In this document: positions 45,195-56,299 of the stretch, piece after piece
Position numbering within the stretch: the stretch's first letter is position 1
How the letters are laid out: each line of letters begins with the position of its first letter
Source: Hymenobacter cellulosivorans
Lineage (GTDB): Bacteria > Bacteroidota > Bacteroidia > Cytophagales > Hymenobacteraceae
Direction of reading: 5' to 3'
Assembly (NCBI RefSeq): GCF_022919135.1
Contig: NZ_CP095049.1
Coordinates: forward strand, 4,964,501-5,028,500
Length of the DNA stretch: 64,000 nucleotides
The notes under the pieces: generated by a model
The model's database searches: none
What the model was told of the DNA's origin: nothing
The model's input: the letters and a program-made list of their open reading frames with translations, nothing else
Position numbers and translations under genes: made by a program

Positions 45195-46622
45195 CTACTC
45201 TCCACCTTTGCCGCCCTTGCCGCCGGCATCCATGCGCACAATTTTGGGCGTGAATGAACCCAGCACGTCGACTAGGTCGCGCTGGTGGGCCATGACTTGG
45301 TGAATGTCCTTGTAGGCCATCGGCGCTTCGTCGAGGCCGCCGCCCATGAGTTCGATGCCGTGGTCTTTGAGCTCCCGGCGCACGTCGCCTTCCTTAAGGG
45401 TTTTCATGGCCTGCCCCCGCGACATGCGCCGCCCAGCCCCGTGCGAAGCCGATTGCAGCGAGTCCCGCTCGCCACGGCCCCGCACAATGAAGCCAGGCGC
45501 GGTCATCGAGCCCGGAATGACGCCCAGCACGCCCTTACCGGCCGGCGTGGCGCCTTTGCGGTGCACAATGGCCTCGCGCCCGTCGGATAGGGTTTCGCGC
45601 CAGGCAAAGTTGTGGTGGTTTTCGACCTTGGCTAGCGGCTTCTCACCCAGGGCCCGGCTGATGCGGCGGTGAATCTGGTCGTGGCAGGCTGAGGCGTAGT
45701 CGCCGGCCAGGTTCATGGCGGCCCAGTATTCCTGCCCGGCCTGGGAGTCGAGGCTAAGCCAGGCCAGGTGGCGGGCTTCGGGCGGCAAGGGGCAGGCGTT
45801 CATGGCCAGCTTGGTGTAGTGCTGGGCCACAGCCGCCCCAATGCCGCGGGAGCCGGAGTGGCTAAGCAGGCCTACGTATTTGCCCACGGGCACGTCGAGC
45901 TCGTTGTCCGGGTCGGTGATGTCGACCACGCCGAACTCGACGAAGTGGTTGCCCGAGCCCGAGGTGCCGATTTGCTCAACGGCGGTTTGGCGCTTGCCGC
46001 GCAGTACGGCAATGTCCTTGAACTCGGGCCGCTCGAAAATGGCGTCGTCCATTTTCTTATCGAAGGCTGAAAACTTGCTACCAAAGCGGGTATTGGCCAG
46101 AATGATGTTGCGCAGCTCTTTGGCCCGCTGGTAGAGCTCGTGCTCGGGCAACGGAAACACCGACAAGGCCATGCGGCAGCCAATATCCATGCCCACGCCG
46201 TAGGGAATGACGGCATTGTCGACGGCCAGCACCCCGCCAATGGGCAGGCCGTAGCCCTGGTGGGCGTCGGGCATCAGGGCCCCGTCGATGGTGACGGGCA
46301 GCTGCATGGCAGTGTCCATCTGCTTGCGGGCCCCGTCCTCGATGAACTCCTCGCCGTAGCGGCGGTAGTCCTTAATTTCGGGATTGAGCCCTACGCTTTT
46401 GCTGGGCTGGGGCACGAGTTCCTTGGCCACGTCGCGCCAGGTTTCGTCGCGCAGGTATTTGTAAGGGTCAGCCTGGATTTGCTGGAGCAAGGCTAGGGCG
46501 CTGCCTTTGTCGAGCTTCTTGAACTGGCGGTCGGCCAGCACGTCGAGGGCGCGGCCAATGGCGGGGCCTTCGGGAAAACCAATCTTGCGCAGGTCGTTGC
46601 CGCGCACCGTTTGCTTGGACAT
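45195..46622 (-). CDS. rtcB: RtcB RNA ligase, first paralogue
   Basis: A 475-residue RNA ligase that joins 2',3'-cyclic phosphate (or 3'-phosphate) ends to 5'-OH ends using GTP and Mn(II). The Mn-binding motifs are DIGCRMALS, SGSGNHFVEFG and HSGSRGIG. The GMP-accepting His lies in SASHGAGRR (about residue 394). The last residues (GGKGGKGGE) are a Gly/Lys tail absent from the second paralogue at 51073. It is convergent with the metal-efflux operon and has no archease gene beside it. Both copies keep all catalytic residues. Confidence 0.95.
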   Translation of the reverse strand: MSKQTVRGNDLRKIGFPEGPAIGRALDVLADRQFKKLDKGSALALLQQIQADPYKYLRDETWRDVAKELVPQPSKSVGLNPEIKDYRRYGEEFIEDGARKQMDTAMQLPVTIDGALMPDAHQGYGLPIGGVLAVDNAVIPYGVGMDIGCRMALSVFPLPEHELYQRAKELRNIILANTRFGSKFSAFDKKMDDAIFERPEFKDIAVLRGKRQTAVEQIGTSGSGNHFVEFGVVDITDPDNELDVPVGKYVGLLSHSGSRGIGAAVAQHYTKLAMNACPLPPEARHLAWLSLDSQAGQEYWAAMNLAGDYASACHDQIHRRISRALGEKPLAKVENHHNFAWRETLSDGREAIVHRKGATPAGKGVLGVIPGSMTAPGFIVRGRGERDSLQSASHGAGRRMSRGQAMKTLKEGDVRRELKDHGIELMGGGLDEAPMAYKDIHQVMAHQRDLVDVLGSFTPKIVRMDAGGKGGKGGE

Positions 46623-52574: not shown

Positions 52575-52601
52575 AAAAAAGCTGCTCCGACCCGGAGCAA
52601 C
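52575..52601 (-). terminator. Intrinsic terminator at the end of the Y RNA array
   Basis: On the minus strand GUUGCUCC (52601-52594) pairs with GGAGCAGC (52588-52581), 8 bp with one G-U, followed directly by six U (52580-52575). It uses the 3' strand of the last RNA unit, so termination and folding of that unit exclude each other. Confidence 0.8.
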
Positions 52602-52681
52602 GGGCCGCCCGCGTCGCAGTGGGGTACTTGCGTACTACCCGACGGGACAGGTCGAAGGAGCGCGGACGTACGGCATCCGGG
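52591..52681 (-). ncRNA. Y RNA-like unit F (91 nt), without a tRNA-like head
   Basis: The RNA runs 5' to 3' from 52681 to 52591. The outer helix CCCGGA/UCCGGG pairs 52676-52681 with 52591-52596. A bulged U follows (52675), then the conserved GC/GC pair and GCCGUA on the 5' side with GUUGC on the 3' side, as in the other units. A middle helix GUCCGCG/CGCGGGC (52661-52667 with 52607-52613) has 7 bp. The head contains CCUUCG and a GGGUA/UACCC hairpin, but no T-arm or D-arm. It is the last unit before the terminator. The call rests on the shared stem architecture; expression is not shown. Confidence 0.6.
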
Positions 52682-52696
52682 CCGGAAAAGCAGTTT

Positions 52697-52789
52697 GCCG
52701 GGCTTAGGAAACGGGTAACAAGGTGGGTAGTCCGGTGCGTATTTTCAGAACGAAGGAATACTACCCGACGACACCGTTTCCGGCCCGGC
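52697..52789 (-). ncRNA. Y RNA-like unit E (93 nt), short head
   Basis: 5' end near 52789. Two stacked outer helices pair 52783-52789 with 52697-52703 and 52774-52781 with 52707-52714 (GGAAACGG/CCGUUUCC). Then come the bulged U (52773) and a GU/AC pair (52771-52772 with 52715-52716). In five other units this is GC/GC, so the change is compensated on both strands. The middle helix GGGUAGU/ACUACCC (52760-52766 with 52725-52731) closes a 28-base loop with CCUUCG. No tRNA-like arms are present. Confidence 0.62.
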
Positions 52790-52932
52790 TCCTGTAATGG
52801 GCAACAAGGCGGGCAGCCTCTCTATTACTGCGCCCTGACCGCTAGGCTACTGCCAGAATTGGCAGGAAGGATTCGAACCTTCGACCTCAGTAACCCTACG
52901 AAGTATGGCTGCCCTACGGCACCACGACAGGA
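52790..52932 (-). ncRNA. Y RNA-like unit D (143 nt) with a complete permuted tRNA-like domain
   Basis: 5' end at 52932. Outer helix: UCCUGU/ACAGGA (52927-52932 with 52790-52795), one mismatch, then 4 bp, bulged U (52921), GC/GC, the G-U/U-G/A-U step, and an 8-bp middle helix GGGCAGCC/GGCUGCCC (52907-52914 with 52811-52818). The head is a cloverleaf in permuted order: anticodon-stem 3' strand UUACUG (52888-52893), variable AGGUC, T-arm GAAGG-UUCGAAU-CCUUC (52866-52882), acceptor CUGCCA-AUUC-UGGCAG closed by a tetraloop (52850-52865), UA, D-arm GCCU-...-GGGC (52832-52847), and anticodon-stem 5' strand CAGUAA (52825-52830). The anticodon stem opens into the Y-type stem through an internal loop holding ACUUCG. 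Confidence 0.8.
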
Positions 52933-52945
52933 TGCTGTGTCGTTC

Positions 52946-52994
52946 GTTGTCAGTTGTCAGTTCGTGCTAACGACTACTCCTGACAACTAACAAC
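52946..52994. repeat. Hairpin repeat of the GTTGTCAGTTGT type, copy 1
   Basis: GTTGTCAGTTGTCAG (52946-52960) pairs over 15 positions with 52980-52994, with one G-U or mismatch, around a 19-base loop. It fills the only sizeable gap inside the array (52933-53005). TTCGTTGTCAGTTGT (52943-52957) recurs exactly in the hairpin at 54682-54737. Confidence 0.65.
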
Positions 52995-53005
52995 AAAAAA
53001 CTAAA

Positions 53006-53151
53006 CTCGTTGGGGCAACTGGGCGCTCAGCCCGTGATCCTGCTCTAACCAACTGAGCTACCGCCAATCCGAAGAACTGACGAGGAGGATTCGAACCTCC
53101 GACCCGGGCATTAAAAGTGCGAAGTAAGGCTAGGCTACGGCACCCAACGAG
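53006..53151 (-). ncRNA. Y RNA-like unit C (146 nt) with a Lys-like permuted tRNA domain
   Basis: 5' end at 53151. Outer helix CUCGUUGGG/CCCAACGAG, 9 bp (53143-53151 with 53006-53014), bulged U (53142), GC/GC. The T-arm GGAGG-UUCGAAU-CCUCC is at 53084-53100. The acceptor UCGUCAG/UUGGCGG (53077-53083 with 53061-53067, 7 pairs including three G-U) is capped by UUCUUCGGA with a cUUCGg tetraloop. The D-arm GCUC-AGUUGGUUA-GAGC is at 53042-53058. CUUUUAA before the T-arm equals a tRNA-Lys(UUU) anticodon loop. The anticodon-stem pairing is less clear here than in unit D. The 3' end is followed by UUUAGUUUUUU, which may end transcription. Confidence 0.75.
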
Positions 53152-53159
53152 GTACTAGT

Positions 53160-53326
53160 GCTATTCTGATTCCGGGGCAACAAGCGGGACGCCCTAACTA
53201 CTGGTGCGTCTACATTTCGCCACCGGCCGCCTCACGGCCGCCGGGCGGGAGTCGAACCCGCACGCCTTGCGGCTTTCAGTTCGGAACGAAGGATTGCGCC
53301 CCTACGGCACCCGAAAAAAGAATAGC
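53160..53326 (-). ncRNA. Y RNA-like unit B (167 nt) with a class II, Leu-like permuted tRNA domain
   Basis: 5' end at 53326. Outer helices pair 53319-53326 with 53160-53167 and 53310-53316 with 53170-53176; bulged U at 53309; GC/GC; middle helix GGGGCGC/GCGUCCC (53296-53302 with 53186-53192). The head has a T-arm GCGGG-UUCGACU-CCCGC (53245-53261), an acceptor of 9 positions with one G-G mismatch closed by a GUGA tetraloop (53223-53244), a D-arm GCG-AAAUGUAGA-CGC (53206-53220) of the tRNA-Leu type, and a separate variable arm GCC-GCAA-GGC (53264-53273). The anticodon stem is CAGU/ACUG. This is a mimic of a long-variable-arm tRNA. Confidence 0.78.
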
Positions 53327-53336
53327 TACAACCAAC

Positions 53337-53466
53337 CCCACCGGGGTAAAAAATGAGAAGCGCGTGCTCTACCAGACTGAGCGACTTTCGCCGGCCATTG
53401 CTGGCGTCGAAAGTCAGGAGTCGAACCTGTTACCCGATGGAACGCTCCCCGACGACACCCGGCGGG
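53337..53466 (-). ncRNA. Y RNA-like unit A2 (130 nt) with permuted tRNA-like domain
   Basis: 5' end at 53466. Outer helix CCCGCCGGG/CCCGGUGGG, 9 bp with one G-U (53458-53466 with 53337-53345); bulged U (53457); GU/AC (as in unit E); middle helix GGGGAGCG/CGCUUCUC, 8 bp with two G-U (53443-53450 with 53355-53362). T-arm CAGG-UUCGACU-CCUG (53415-53429), acceptor CUUUCG/CGAAAG (53408-53413 with 53385-53390) closed by a 17-base loop that can form GCC/GGC, D-arm GCUC-AGUCUGGUA-GAGC (53366-53382). The anticodon stem merges with the middle helix. Confidence 0.75.
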
Positions 53467-53487
53467 AAATTTACCAAGTGAACTCAA

Positions 53488-53634
53488 CCACAGGCCAGGG
53501 CAACAGTCGCCCGCGAATGTTTTCCTACGGCGACCAAAGCGGCCCTAGCGGGATTCGAACCCGTAACCATTCGTTGCCGAACAGCCTGAAAACTACCCAC
53601 GAAGTAACGCTCGGCTACGGCACCTGGCCGGTGG
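53488..53634 (-). ncRNA. Y RNA-like unit A1 (147 nt), first of the array, with a degenerate head
   Basis: 5' end at 53634. Outer helix GGCCAGG/CCUGGCC (53623-53629 with 53493-53499), extended by CCAC/GUGG across one mismatch; bulged U (53622); GC/GC; GCCGUAG on the 5' side and CUGUUGC on the 3' side. The 5' internal loop holds UUACUUCG. A T-arm CGGG-UUCGAAU-CCCG is at 53549-53563. The part where the acceptor and D-arm should be folds differently (GGCC/GGUC, then GUCGCC/GGCGAC), so the tRNA likeness is reduced to the T-arm. Confidence 0.68.
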
Positions 53635-53742: not shown

Positions 53743-54582
53743 TTATGAGGTAAGACCTGCCAGTTCGATTTCAAAGGCCCGCAGCACTTGGTGCGGAGCA
53801 TTGGGGTCGAAGATGGCAAAGTCGAGGCGGGAGAAACTGTTGCGCCAGCCGGGCTGGGCCAGCGCTTCGGCAAACAGCCGGGCTACCTGGGCCGGGTCGT
53901 TGCCGAAGACCCCGCAGCCCCAAGCCCCGAGCACCAGGGCCTCGCAGCCGTGGCGGGCGGCCATGCCCAGCACCTGCCGGATACGCCGGCGCATAGTTGG
54001 CGCCAGCTCAGGTAGCAGCTCCGAAGTATTGCGCCGCAGGGCCCCGGCATTCACGGCCGGCGAGGTGATAATGTCGATGCGGTAGGGCTCCGGGAGCCAG
54101 CGGCCGGCGTCATCGAGCAACACCGGCACGCCGGGCGAGTAGATGGCGTAGTCGCTGTAGAGGCCGTTGCGGTGGGCGTTGTGCTGGTACATCTCCGGAA
54201 ACTGCAGCTGGCACGGATACAGCCCCGAGGAGCGGGCCAGGCTTTCTTCCTGGGCCTGGCTGCCGCCCAGAAACCCACCGCCGGGGTTGCGGGCCGAGGC
54301 GAAATTGAGCACCCCGACACGGGCAAATTTCTGGCTTAATTCAGCAGCGGCTTCGAGCGTAGTGGCCTGGTAGACCCGTACTTCGGCCGGCGCCTTGTCG
54401 GTGAGTCCGGGTTCCTGCCCCACCGCTTCGGCGTCCGCCGGCCGGTAAAGCAGACTGCCTTGCACGGCAGCGTGTTGCCAGGCCCCGATGCTGACTTCGG
54501 CTCCTTCCGCGGTGTGGTAGCGGCCGGTTTCGAGAGCGGCGAGGGTGAGGCGGGCCAGTTGTTGACGTTGTTCGCGGTTCAT
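53743..54582 (-). CDS. Microbial PARG-like protein (TIGR02452 family)
   Basis: A 279-residue protein of the macrodomain-related microbial poly(ADP-ribose) glycohydrolase family. The signature is NFASARNPGGGFLGGSQAQE (about residues 93-112) with the GGG-x6-8-QEE catalytic loop, then EESLARSSGLYP, and the late loop GAWGCGVFGNDPAQVA (about 219-234). Such enzymes bind or remove ADP-ribose from proteins or nucleic acids. It lies between the Ro60 gene and the Y RNA array on the same strand, 193 bases after the Ro60 stop. A role in reversing ADP-ribosylation of RNA or of the RNA-repair proteins is an inference from position. Confidence 0.88.
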   Translation of the reverse strand: MNREQRQQLARLTLAALETGRYHTAEGAEVSIGAWQHAAVQGSLLYRPADAEAVGQEPGLTDKAPAEVRVYQATTLEAAAELSQKFARVGVLNFASARNPGGGFLGGSQAQEESLARSSGLYPCQLQFPEMYQHNAHRNGLYSDYAIYSPGVPVLLDDAGRWLPEPYRIDIITSPAVNAGALRRNTSELLPELAPTMRRRIRQVLGMAARHGCEALVLGAWGCGVFGNDPAQVARLFAEALAQPGWRNSFSRLDFAIFDPNAPHQVLRAFEIELAGLTS

Positions 54583-54775: not shown

Positions 54776-56299
54776 CTACAGGTCTATTTTTTCAATTTCG
54801 GTTACTGCCGAGCCCCCGTTTTCCAGGGCCTGCAGCACGTCGAATACTTTATCCGACCAGCCGGCAATTAGCGCCACGCCGTGGCCTTCGCGCACTTCGA
54901 TGGGCGCCGAGCCGTGGCCGGCCAAATCGAAGAGGTAGAGCCGGGCCTGGGGGGCCACCGTGCGGCGGTAGTCTATCCAGGCCTGGGCCAGGGTGCCGCC
55001 GTCGCCGGTGCTGTTCCAGAGCTGGCAGTCGGTGAAAATCATCACCTTATCTACCACCTCGCGGTGCTGCAACAGGTCCTTGATGACCAGGTGCCCGTTG
55101 GTGCTGTAGCCCACCTCACCTTCGCGGCGGTAGAACTCCTGCACGTTTTGCAGGGTCCGGCCCCGGGGCAGGCTGATGCGCTTCCAGGTGTCGCCGAACA
55201 TGCCGGTCACTACGTGCCCGCAGCGGCTCTGCAGGAGCATGCCCAGCACCAAGCCCACGTCGTAGAGCAGCACTTTGCTGCGCTGGGACACCGGCTGCTG
55301 CATCGAGCCCGACACGTCGCAGGCGACTACCACGCGGGTGTCGGCCGCGAAGCCGCGCAGGTTGACCACGCTGTGGGCAATGGCCGTTTCCAAGGCTTCC
55401 AGCACCAACGGTACGTAGCCCGACTTCAAGACCAGCACCTCGCGGTAGGCGGCCAGGAAGCGGAAGGGCAGCTGCTTGGCCCGGGCCACGGCCTGCTCAT
55501 TGCTTAGCGTAGCGCACACCCGCTCTACCGCCCCAGCCGACACGTCGGCGTCGAGGATGTTGCGCAGGTTGCGCAGCAAGGCCATGTAGCCCAGCTTGCC
55601 GCTGCTAATCAGGGTTTCCCAGGTGGCGCGGAATGCCGCGGCTCGTTCTTGCGGCGAAGCAAAGGCCTGCTGGCCCAATGCCGACAGTTCGGTTTCCCAG
55701 GTGTAGGGCGTGGGCAGGGTACCGTGCACGAGCTGGTCGAACAAGGCTTGCTGCTCGACGTCCCGGGCCGTGGGGTGCACCAGGAACAGGGCGTCGCGCA
55801 GGCGCACCTGCCCGGCCCGGTCATACTTGGCCAGCTGGTAGCCGTCGAACCGGTTGAAACTCAGGGCCAGGCCTTTCTGCACCTGCTTGGAGAGGCGGTT
55901 AAGGGTTTTCACCCCTGCCCGCTCGTTGGCTCGGGCGTAGTAAGCCAGCAGTTCGGTGATTTCGTCGGCGCGCTGCACCACCCGGGCCACCAGGCGGCTC
56001 ACCAGGCTGTCGCCCTGGTGTAGGCGGGCCAGCTCCACGGTCAGGACCAGAGGCACGGTGCGCAGGTAGAGCTGCTCCCGGGCATAGACCGCCAGACGGG
56101 CCACAAACTCGGGGTCGTTGCGAGCTACCAGGTCCCGCAAGCGCTGCAAGCGGGTGTCGGCCTTTTCGTAGAACTGGTCGCTCAGGGCAGCCGTGGCTAC
56201 GGCGGCGTAGAGCTCCAGCTGGGGCGTGAGCGTATAGGCTACCGCGCCTTCGTGGTTGAGGACGGGCTGAGCTTTGCGGAAGGGTAGATTGAAGCGCAT
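54776..56299 (-). CDS. rsr: Ro60/Rsr protein (TROVE and von Willebrand A domains)
   Basis: A 507-residue Ro60 orthologue. Residues about 15-310 form the TROVE ring of helical repeats (YAREQLYLRTVPLVLTVELA, LLAYYARANERAGVKTLNRL, LGYMALLRNLRNILDADVSA). Residues 320-507 are a VWA domain with the MIDAS motif DVSGSM (Asp about 328), FGDTW and IFTDCQLW. In animals and in Deinococcus and Salmonella, Ro60 binds Y RNAs on its outer rim and damaged RNA in its central hole, and can pair with PNPase or other RNases. The Y RNA-like array 1.1 kb downstream fits this. It follows the PcfJ-domain gene by 61 bases. Confidence 0.95.
   Translation of the reverse strand: MRFNLPFRKAQPVLNHEGAVAYTLTPQLELYAAVATAALSDQFYEKADTRLQRLRDLVARNDPEFVARLAVYAREQLYLRTVPLVLTVELARLHQGDSLVSRLVARVVQRADEITELLAYYARANERAGVKTLNRLSKQVQKGLALSFNRFDGYQLAKYDRAGQVRLRDALFLVHPTARDVEQQALFDQLVHGTLPTPYTWETELSALGQQAFASPQERAAAFRATWETLISSGKLGYMALLRNLRNILDADVSAGAVERVCATLSNEQAVARAKQLPFRFLAAYREVLVLKSGYVPLVLEALETAIAHSVVNLRGFAADTRVVVACDVSGSMQQPVSQRSKVLLYDVGLVLGMLLQSRCGHVVTGMFGDTWKRISLPRGRTLQNVQEFYRREGEVGYSTNGHLVIKDLLQHREVVDKVMIFTDCQLWNSTGDGGTLAQAWIDYRRTVAPQARLYLFDLAGHGSAPIEVREGHGVALIAGWSDKVFDVLQALENGGSAVTEIEKIDL

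What the first reader, a model, noticed from the sequence alone, without database searches (positions are those of the whole stretch)
52591..53634. Array of seven Y RNA-like units, five with tRNA-like parts
About 1 kb between the PARG-like gene and rtcB holds no protein gene. It reads on the minus strand as seven consecutive units (A1, A2, B, C, D, E, F), spaced 0-73 bases. Each has an outer helix of its own sequence, then one bulged U, then a conserved 5' strand G[C/U]CGU and 3' strand [C/U]UUGUU[G/A]C, then a middle helix. Five have a T-arm with UUCGAAU or UUCGACU. Bacterial Y RNAs (YrlA) with a tRNA-like module are known, usually as one or two copies; a seven-member array with different heads is new to me.
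Basis: partly seen in the sequence, partly recalled or inferred. Interest (0 to 1): 0.95.

Follow-up and report, generated by a model that had tools for sequence, protein, structure and literature searches.

The report
Seven-member bacterial Y RNA array
In this Hymenobacter-type bacterium seven structured RNA units stand in a row near the gene for a Ro60-like protein; each has the same kind of stem, which likely docks on that protein, and a different head, five of them partly tRNA-like, so the row would let one protein do several RNA-handling jobs.

Summary
The minus strand between the PARG-like gene and rtcB carries seven structured units; no further strong match was found in this genome. In the Hymenobacter family 100 of 101 Rsr loci examined have 2 to 9 such units (499 in all, against 5 on the reverse strand), and relatives occur across Bacteroidota. 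Covariation is strong, also in helices not used to find the units. Five window units have a T-arm; three of these also have a D-arm, in circularly permuted order, and across the family the tertiary tRNA pair 15-48 covaries. Two units have no tRNA-like part. The units go with Rsr (Ro60): of 200 family genomes 101 show both, 4 only RNA, 1 only TROVE; those four have a broken or missing rsr. Rfam's YrlA model hits four units, all far below its cut-off. These are bacterial Y RNAs of a divergent kind, in arrays whose heads are individually conserved. The likeliest role is a set of exchangeable Rsr adaptors. Transcription, Rsr binding and function are not shown. Whether such arrays are already in print could not be checked: the key papers are not held.

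The parts
53488..53634 (-). Y RNA unit A1 (147 nt), T-arm 53564-53548, no D-arm found
   Evidence: R1 E 1.1e-10, R2 E 2.7e-10; weakest middle helix of the seven (score 11)
53336..53467 (-). Y RNA unit A2 (132 nt), T-arm 53430-53414, acceptor-like helix, D-arm 53382-53366
   Evidence: R1 E 6.9e-22, but this unit is a row of A1; Rfam YrlA 27.3 bits
53163..53323 (-). Y RNA unit B (161 nt), T-arm 53261-53245, D-arm not found by the strict test
   Evidence: R1 E 2e-16; not a row of A1; Rfam YrlA only 15.6 bits, E 5.5
53006..53151 (-). Y RNA unit C (146 nt), T-arm 53100-53084, D-arm 53058-53042; of the seven it matches most units elsewhere (171)
   Evidence: R1 E 1.6e-28, a row of A1; Rfam YrlA 30.7 bits
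52790..52932 (-). Y RNA unit D (143 nt), T-arm 52882-52866, D-arm 52847-52832, clear anticodon-stem-like helix
   Evidence: (a row of A1); Rfam YrlA 35.3 bits, E 1.1e-5
52707..52781 (-). Y RNA unit E (75 nt), no tRNA-like part
   Evidence: R2 E 1.3e-12, a row of A2; R1 E 1e-8, not a row of A1
52585..52687 (-). Y RNA unit F (103 nt), no tRNA-like part; its 3' strand overlaps a terminator-like hairpin 52601-52581
   Evidence: R2 E 2e-15, a row of A2; R1 E 1.7e-10, not a row of A1
52933..53005 (-). C-D spacer: dispersed palindromic repeat, at the place where some relatives hold one more unit
54776..56299 (-). rsr: TROVE domain and Ro60 vWA domain (Ro60 homologue), 507 aa
   Evidence: PDB sequence hits 9l5y, 9kop, E 7e-29
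53743..54582 (-). microbial-type PARG catalytic domain protein, 279 aa
51073..52473 (-). rtcB RNA ligase, 466 aa
56361..57641 (-). PcfJ-like protein, 426 aa, upstream of rsr

Best explanation
Seven consecutive structured-RNA units lie between the PARG-like gene and rtcB in an rsr (Ro60-type) gene cluster; their shared stem is predicted to bind the Rsr protein, and their seven different heads likely serve as exchangeable adaptors that give that one protein different RNA partners or nucleases. Shown here by sequence comparison: the stem (outer helix, single bulged U, G-C and Y-R pairs, middle helix, fixed-distance CUUCG) and, in three window units, a tRNA-like body in permuted order (T-arm, acceptor helix closed by a loop, D-arm). 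Inferred: the units are transcribed with the cluster and cut apart; the stem seats each RNA on the Rsr ring, as published for other bacterial Y RNAs; tRNA-like heads mimic a tRNA elbow and may recruit PNPase or tRNA-handling enzymes; the other heads recruit something else or only gate the ring; RtcB and the PARG-like enzyme mend ends or remove ADP-ribose from damaged RNA.
For: Linkage: TROVE in 102 and model R2 in 105 of 200 family genomes, 101 in both; in the phylum sample 28 and 22 of 395, 21 in both. The four RNA-only family genomes keep two to six, in G191 one, R1 matches before rtcB, and rsr there is reduced to fragments or (G191) not found in the 16 kb fetched. Structure: covariation score 0.695 against 0.188 shuffled (0 of 500) in 42 full units, 0.760 against 0.215 (0 of 500) in 33 short ones; the middle helix, not used for selection, scores 14 or more in 92% of own mates and 33% of swapped mates; the acceptor helix scores 12 or more in 73% against 9%, and the tertiary pair 15-48 is G-C or A-U in 161 of 169 against a shuffled mean of 131.8, maximum 142 of 2000 shuffles. 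Separate units: reciprocal best partners of the window's units stand in the same order in 36 of the 50 loci that share three or more, and heads keep 0.71-0.82 identity among partners. Exchangeability: L065 unit 6 keeps the stem of L071 unit 5 and L083 unit 6, but its head does not align with theirs (identity 0.48 and 0.49, random-pair mean 0.59). Literature passages: the Y RNA stem binds Rsr and a T-arm-like part binds the KH and S1 domains of PNPase (PMC6181284); YrlA with a tRNA-like domain and the rsr-yrlBA-rtcBA operon (PMC8394870; PMC9879122).
Against: No RNA, binding or function data. No TAnnTTyG promoter motif within 60 bases upstream of the first unit in any of 100 loci, and terminator-like sites in the region are no more than in shuffles (2 against 2.0). 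That heads have separate jobs rests on conservation and one clear change of head, and 14 of 50 loci are not in the same order. Outer helix, G-C/Y-R coupling and, for full units, T and D stems were part of finding the units, so pairing counts for those are inflated. In the window itself unit A2 breaks the 15-48 pair (G-A) and A1 has a weak middle helix. Genome searches with R1 and R2 scored only part of the first-look candidates (for example 150 of 2696 in the own genome, 22 or 11 per genome in the surveys), so counts per genome are lower bounds and absences are not firm.
Confidence: 0.6

Rival explanations
1. Dosage and gating only: the units are redundant copies that cap the Rsr ring; multiplicity raises Y RNA level, and head differences are drift under a constraint for a compact fold.
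For: All units share one kind of stem; unit number varies from 2 to 9 between loci that have any; 97 of 555 pairs with similar outer helices have heads no more alike than the 75th percentile of random pairs.
Against: Partner units keep their order in 36 of 50 loci and 0.71-0.82 head identity; among 169 full units U8, A9, A26 and C48 are each kept in 148 to 156, which drift would not do.
Confidence: 0.2
2. Decoys: the tRNA-like heads act as baits that keep anticodon nucleases or other tRNA-attacking toxins away from real tRNAs, while RtcB mends those that were cut; several heads would cover several attackers.
For: rtcB follows in 89 of 101 loci; Hughes et al. 2020 name competitive inhibition of the anticodon nuclease by YrlA as a possibility (PMC7790460 passages). 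Acceptor helices differ (104 distinct 3' strands in 169 units).
Against: The anticodon loop is replaced by the Rsr-type stem; an anticodon-stem-like helix scores 8 or more in only 24% of full units (5% swapped). Two of seven window units and 162 of 499 in all have no T-arm or D-arm found. Fragments of YrlA were not detected in Salmonella.
Confidence: 0.15
3. Cis-acting leader: the structures are a regulatory leader or a series of attenuators for rtcB rather than separate RNAs.
For: The array usually lies directly before rtcB (median 110 bases from the last unit to the rtcB match, 89 loci).
Against: In 12 of 101 loci no rtcB match follows rsr in the stretch examined, yet 11 of these keep units; in 8 cases each a PcfJ-like or PARG-like gene lies inside the array.
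Confidence: 0.03
4. Permuted tRNA genes: the units are precursors of real tRNAs, circularised by the neighbouring RtcB and then cut to size.
For: The order T-arm, acceptor, D-arm is that of permuted tRNA genes (recalled), and rtcB is adjacent.
Against: 44 ordinary tRNA genes are found in the genome outside the window; ARAGORN finds no tRNA in the window; the anticodon position is a conserved stem shared with units that have no tRNA part; the units go with rsr.
Confidence: 0.02

Closest known systems
YrlA (Rfam RF02553), Salmonella and other bacteria
   Same: Closing stem, then T-arm, acceptor helix and D-arm in permuted order, as in the RF02553 consensus; rsr and rtcB in the same cluster (PMC8394870 passages)
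   Different: Best score here 35.3 bits against a cut-off of 69; no YrlA hit at the cut-off in 11 further loci; many units per locus, among them units with T-arm only or none; fixed-distance CUUCG after the stem
rsr-yrlBA-rtcBA RNA repair operon of Salmonella (two Y RNAs)
   Same: Rsr, Y RNAs and RtcB in one cluster and in that order (PMC9879122 passages)
   Different: Seven RNAs; PARG-like and PcfJ-like genes; no RtcA or RtcR among the nine neighbouring proteins scanned
Deinococcus radiodurans Y RNA in RYPER (Rsr, Y RNA, PNPase)
   Same: Y RNA stem on Rsr, part resembling a tRNA T-arm (PMC6181284 passages)
   Different: No Y RNA family other than YrlA is listed by Rfam for the window (that Rfam holds a Deinococcus one is recalled); the PNPase link is untested here
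Metazoan Y RNAs
   Same: Several small RNAs share one Ro60-binding stem (four in human; PMC6340977 passages)
   Different: No metazoan Y RNA match in Rfam; no tRNA-like body in them (recalled)

Membership tests
Bacterial Y RNA (YrlA kind) | Encoded near a TROVE/Rsr gene | tested here: met
Bacterial Y RNA (YrlA kind) | Closing stem with bulge and conserved helix (putative Rsr site) | tested here: met
   7 of 7 units; covariation, part of it by selection
Bacterial Y RNA (YrlA kind) | tRNA-like module, permuted T-arm, acceptor, D-arm | tested here: inconclusive
   3 of 7 units full (A2, C, D), 2 T-arm only (A1, B), 2 none (E, F)
Rfam RF02553 YrlA | Score at or above the gathering cut-off | tested here: not met
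   35.3, 30.7, 27.3 and 15.6 bits against 69; so it is not filed as RF02553
Bacterial Y RNA (YrlA kind) | Transcribed and bound by Rsr | not testable with these tools
   no RNA or binding data
Bacterial Y RNA (YrlA kind) | Tethers PNPase | not testable with these tools
   reported for Deinococcus (passages)
rsr-yrlBA-rtcBA operon | rtcB downstream of the Y RNAs | tested here: met
   89 of 101 loci
rsr-yrlBA-rtcBA operon | RtcA and RtcR present | tested here: not met
   nine neighbouring proteins scanned, none matches; the rest of the genome was not searched for them
tRNA gene | Recognised as a tRNA | tested here: not met
   0 genes in the window; RF00005 at most 15.6 bits against 29

The most novel reading that the evidence does not exclude
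Bacteroidota run a plug-in system: one Rsr ring with a constant RNA socket and a row of up to nine swappable RNA heads, some of them circularly permuted tRNAs, each head handing the ring a different partner or substrate, with heads replaced as cassettes while the socket stays.
Probability: 0.3. Interest if true: 0.85.

Novelty: new variant of a known kind. Interest (0 to 1): 0.62.

Why it matters
What bacterial Ro60 and its Y RNAs do is still largely open. A natural series of up to nine paralogous Y RNAs on one constant stem, in Hymenobacter species that are in culture collections, separates the putative Rsr-binding part from the effector part and makes the adaptor idea testable unit by unit. 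It also adds a large clade of Y RNAs that Rfam's model misses in the loci tested, and shows covariation of a tertiary pair in a permuted tRNA mimic.

Tried and rejected
Protein-coding explanation: rejected (stops in all six frames, gaps not in threes). Ordinary tRNA genes: rejected. Recent copies of local tRNA genes: no T-arm or D-arm of the window is identical to one in the 30 tRNA loci fetched of the 44 listed (best 15 of 17 and 16 of 17). Other Rfam hits in the region at E up to 10 (TUG1_1, tRNA-Sec, SOX2OT_exon4, Vault, mir-4774 and others) are chance-level. Bacteroidota promoter motif upstream of units: 0 of 100 first units and 3 of 399 others. Terminator scan: no excess, though a T-run of five or more follows 49 of 100 last units and 81 of 399 inner ones. 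Anticodon-stem helix: weak overall (24% against 5% swapped). The second TROVE copy in G146 (L131) has no units. G060 has one TROVE match (E 2.8e-8) and no R2 match at E up to 0.01. Phylum genomes with TROVE but no R2 match: 7 of 28; of the three that were fetched, R1 found units in G275 (L174) and G477 (L184) and none in G469 (L183). The one phylum genome with R2 but no TROVE call, G329, holds an rsr fragment (residues 1-127) beside its unit. Some of the 160 matches cover only the tRNA-like part of the model and may be tRNA genes. Four of the 46 loci (L239, L243, L249, L257) lie on contigs of the same length as ones already in the first set, and two of these (as L042 and L057) gave rows to A1, so they are not independent. 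The 80 named loci also overlap the first set and are not counted again.

Full report
What is there. The window belongs to an unnamed 6.1 Mb genome (G000). A genome that the tool calls same genus (G126) has a contig of 2,490,753 bases, the length of a contig of Hymenobacter metallicola, and the closest named Rsr, 94% identical, is in that species, so I call it Hymenobacter-type. On the minus strand run PcfJ-like, Rsr (TROVE and Ro60 vWA), PARG_cat_microb, the array, rtcB. Seven units were parsed at 53634-52585.

More than chance. A scanner asked for an outer helix, one U, G[C/U]CG, and a matching T[TC]GC or T[TC]AC 45-230 bases on, between rsr and rtcB (or in 3.5 kb downstream where no rtcB was matched). 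It was run on 101 loci: the window plus 100 loci of 99 genomes; two TROVE genomes, G060 and G199, were not fetched. It gave 499 units, 5 on the reverse complement and 6.85 in mononucleotide shuffles. 100 of 101 loci have 2 to 9 units; one (L131, a second TROVE copy) has none. Bases the scanner did not use are fixed in place: U at +5 in 496 of 499, G at +12 in 485, CUUCG at +18 to +22 in 480 to 490 each.

Structure. Rows of alignment A1 are 42 of 150 filtered full units, rows of A2 33 of 87 short units, picked for low word overlap. RNAalifold gives 35 pairs in A1, 30 with double changes, and 23 in A2, 21 with double changes. Counts on the named structure: A1 95.3% of cells paired against 67.8% shuffled, covariation 0.695 against 0.188, slid versions 0.09-0.14. 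A2 94.9% against 62.1%, 0.760 against 0.215; for one measure, pairs with a change on both sides, 2 of 500 shuffles reached the observed 21. The outer helix, the G-C/Y-R step and the T and D stems were selection criteria; the middle helix and the acceptor helix were not, and their own-mate tests are. In 46 loci outside Hymenobacter the middle-helix test gives 84% own against 9% swapped in 122 units, and CUUCG is kept at 82-96% per base.

tRNA-like body. Of 499 units 169 have T-arm and D-arm, 163 T-arm only, 5 D-arm only, 162 neither. The order is T-arm, 3' acceptor strand, closing loop, 5' acceptor strand, D-arm, as in the RF02553 consensus. Tertiary positions that the search left free behave as in tRNA (tRNA numbering is general knowledge): U8 156, A9 151, A26 149, C48 148 of 169, and 15-48 is G-C in 144 and A-U in 17. 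A14 and the GG of the D-loop were search criteria. The window's A2 departs (C9, A48); C and D fit. So most full heads look like closed, circularly permuted tRNA bodies, in line with what is reported for YrlA (PMC8394870 passages; the crystal structure paper is not held).

One genome, one family, one phylum. In the own genome these seven score E 9.6e-7 or better; the next two matches, E 0.0016 and 0.038, overlap ordinary tRNA genes (places compared); 150 of 2696 first-look candidates were scored. Family: R2 in 105 of 200 genomes, TROVE in 102, 101 both (compared by reading the two lists). The four without a TROVE match keep R1 matches before rtcB: six in G150, four in G036, two in G031, one in G191 (R2 gives two in G191). 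rsr there is reduced to residues 1-86 and 474-507 (G150), 24-81 and 469-507 (G036), 1-73 (G031), and not found in the stretch fetched (G191). Phylum: R2 in 22 of 395, TROVE in 28, 21 both. In 46 loci outside Hymenobacter R1 gives 160 matches at E up to 0.01, in 45 of the 46. The surveys scored only 22 or 11 candidates per genome with strict filters, so they undercount.

Unit identity. The window's units have reciprocal best partners in the same order in 36 of 50 loci with three or more partners; over all locus pairs 1078 of 1674 are in order against 196.6 expected for random order, the pairs not being independent. In up to 25 nearest loci per unit the stem core keeps 0.87-0.92 identity, heads 0.71-0.82, outer helices 0.52-0.82. 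Units are more alike than spacers in five relatives (0.69-0.86 against 0.57-0.72). A change of head is clear in L065 unit 6: its stem is that of L071 unit 5, its head aligns with none of the nearest partners, and matches only 33 bases of L104 unit 5 (E 1.8e-4), so the change may be stepwise. L086 unit 6 against L044 unit 5 and L070 unit 5 is a second, weaker case.

How it most likely works. Shown: conserved stem, different but conserved heads, close tie to rsr. Inferred from published Rsr work: the stem sits on the Rsr ring and the head recruits a partner, PNPase in Deinococcus through a T-arm-like part (PMC6181284 passages). A row of heads would then give one ring several functions. The PARG-like enzyme and RtcB suggest RNA damage as the setting; by tblastn with the window's proteins rtcB follows in 89, PARG-like lies in 35, PcfJ-like upstream in 39 and downstream in 9 of 101 loci.

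Known or new. Bacterial Y RNAs with tRNA-like domains, by rsr and rtcB, are known; two are described in Salmonella (PMC9879122 passages). Searches that joined Y RNA with Hymenobacter, Bacteroidetes, multiple or array listed no paper on such arrays by title, but the central papers are outside the library, so I do not claim that arrays are unpublished. Rfam's YrlA finds nothing at its cut-off in the window or in 11 more loci.

Noticed in passing
window 52933-53005: The C-D spacer is a palindromic repeat with 14 matches in this genome (itself included), at the place where L044, L086 and L070 hold one more unit with an outer helix beginning CTGCTTACC; the window may have lost that unit.
   Followed up: partly
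L275 and L278 (G150, G036): rsr remnants: residues about 87-473 and 82-468 are missing, with nearly the same end points in two genomes, and by coordinates the two parts are out of frame, while Y RNA units and rtcB stay.
   Followed up: partly
101 loci, for example L081: A PcfJ-like gene lies inside the Y RNA array in 8 cases and a PARG-like gene in 8, which would tie both to the system.
   Followed up: no
window 45195-46622: A second rtcB gene lies about 4.5 kb beyond the one after the array, same orientation.
   Followed up: no
window 52601-52581: A terminator-like hairpin followed by six T uses the 3' strand of unit F, so termination and the F fold would compete.
   Followed up: no
L065 unit 6: Head changed while the stem is that of its relatives; 33 bases of the new head match L104 unit 5.
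   Followed up: partly
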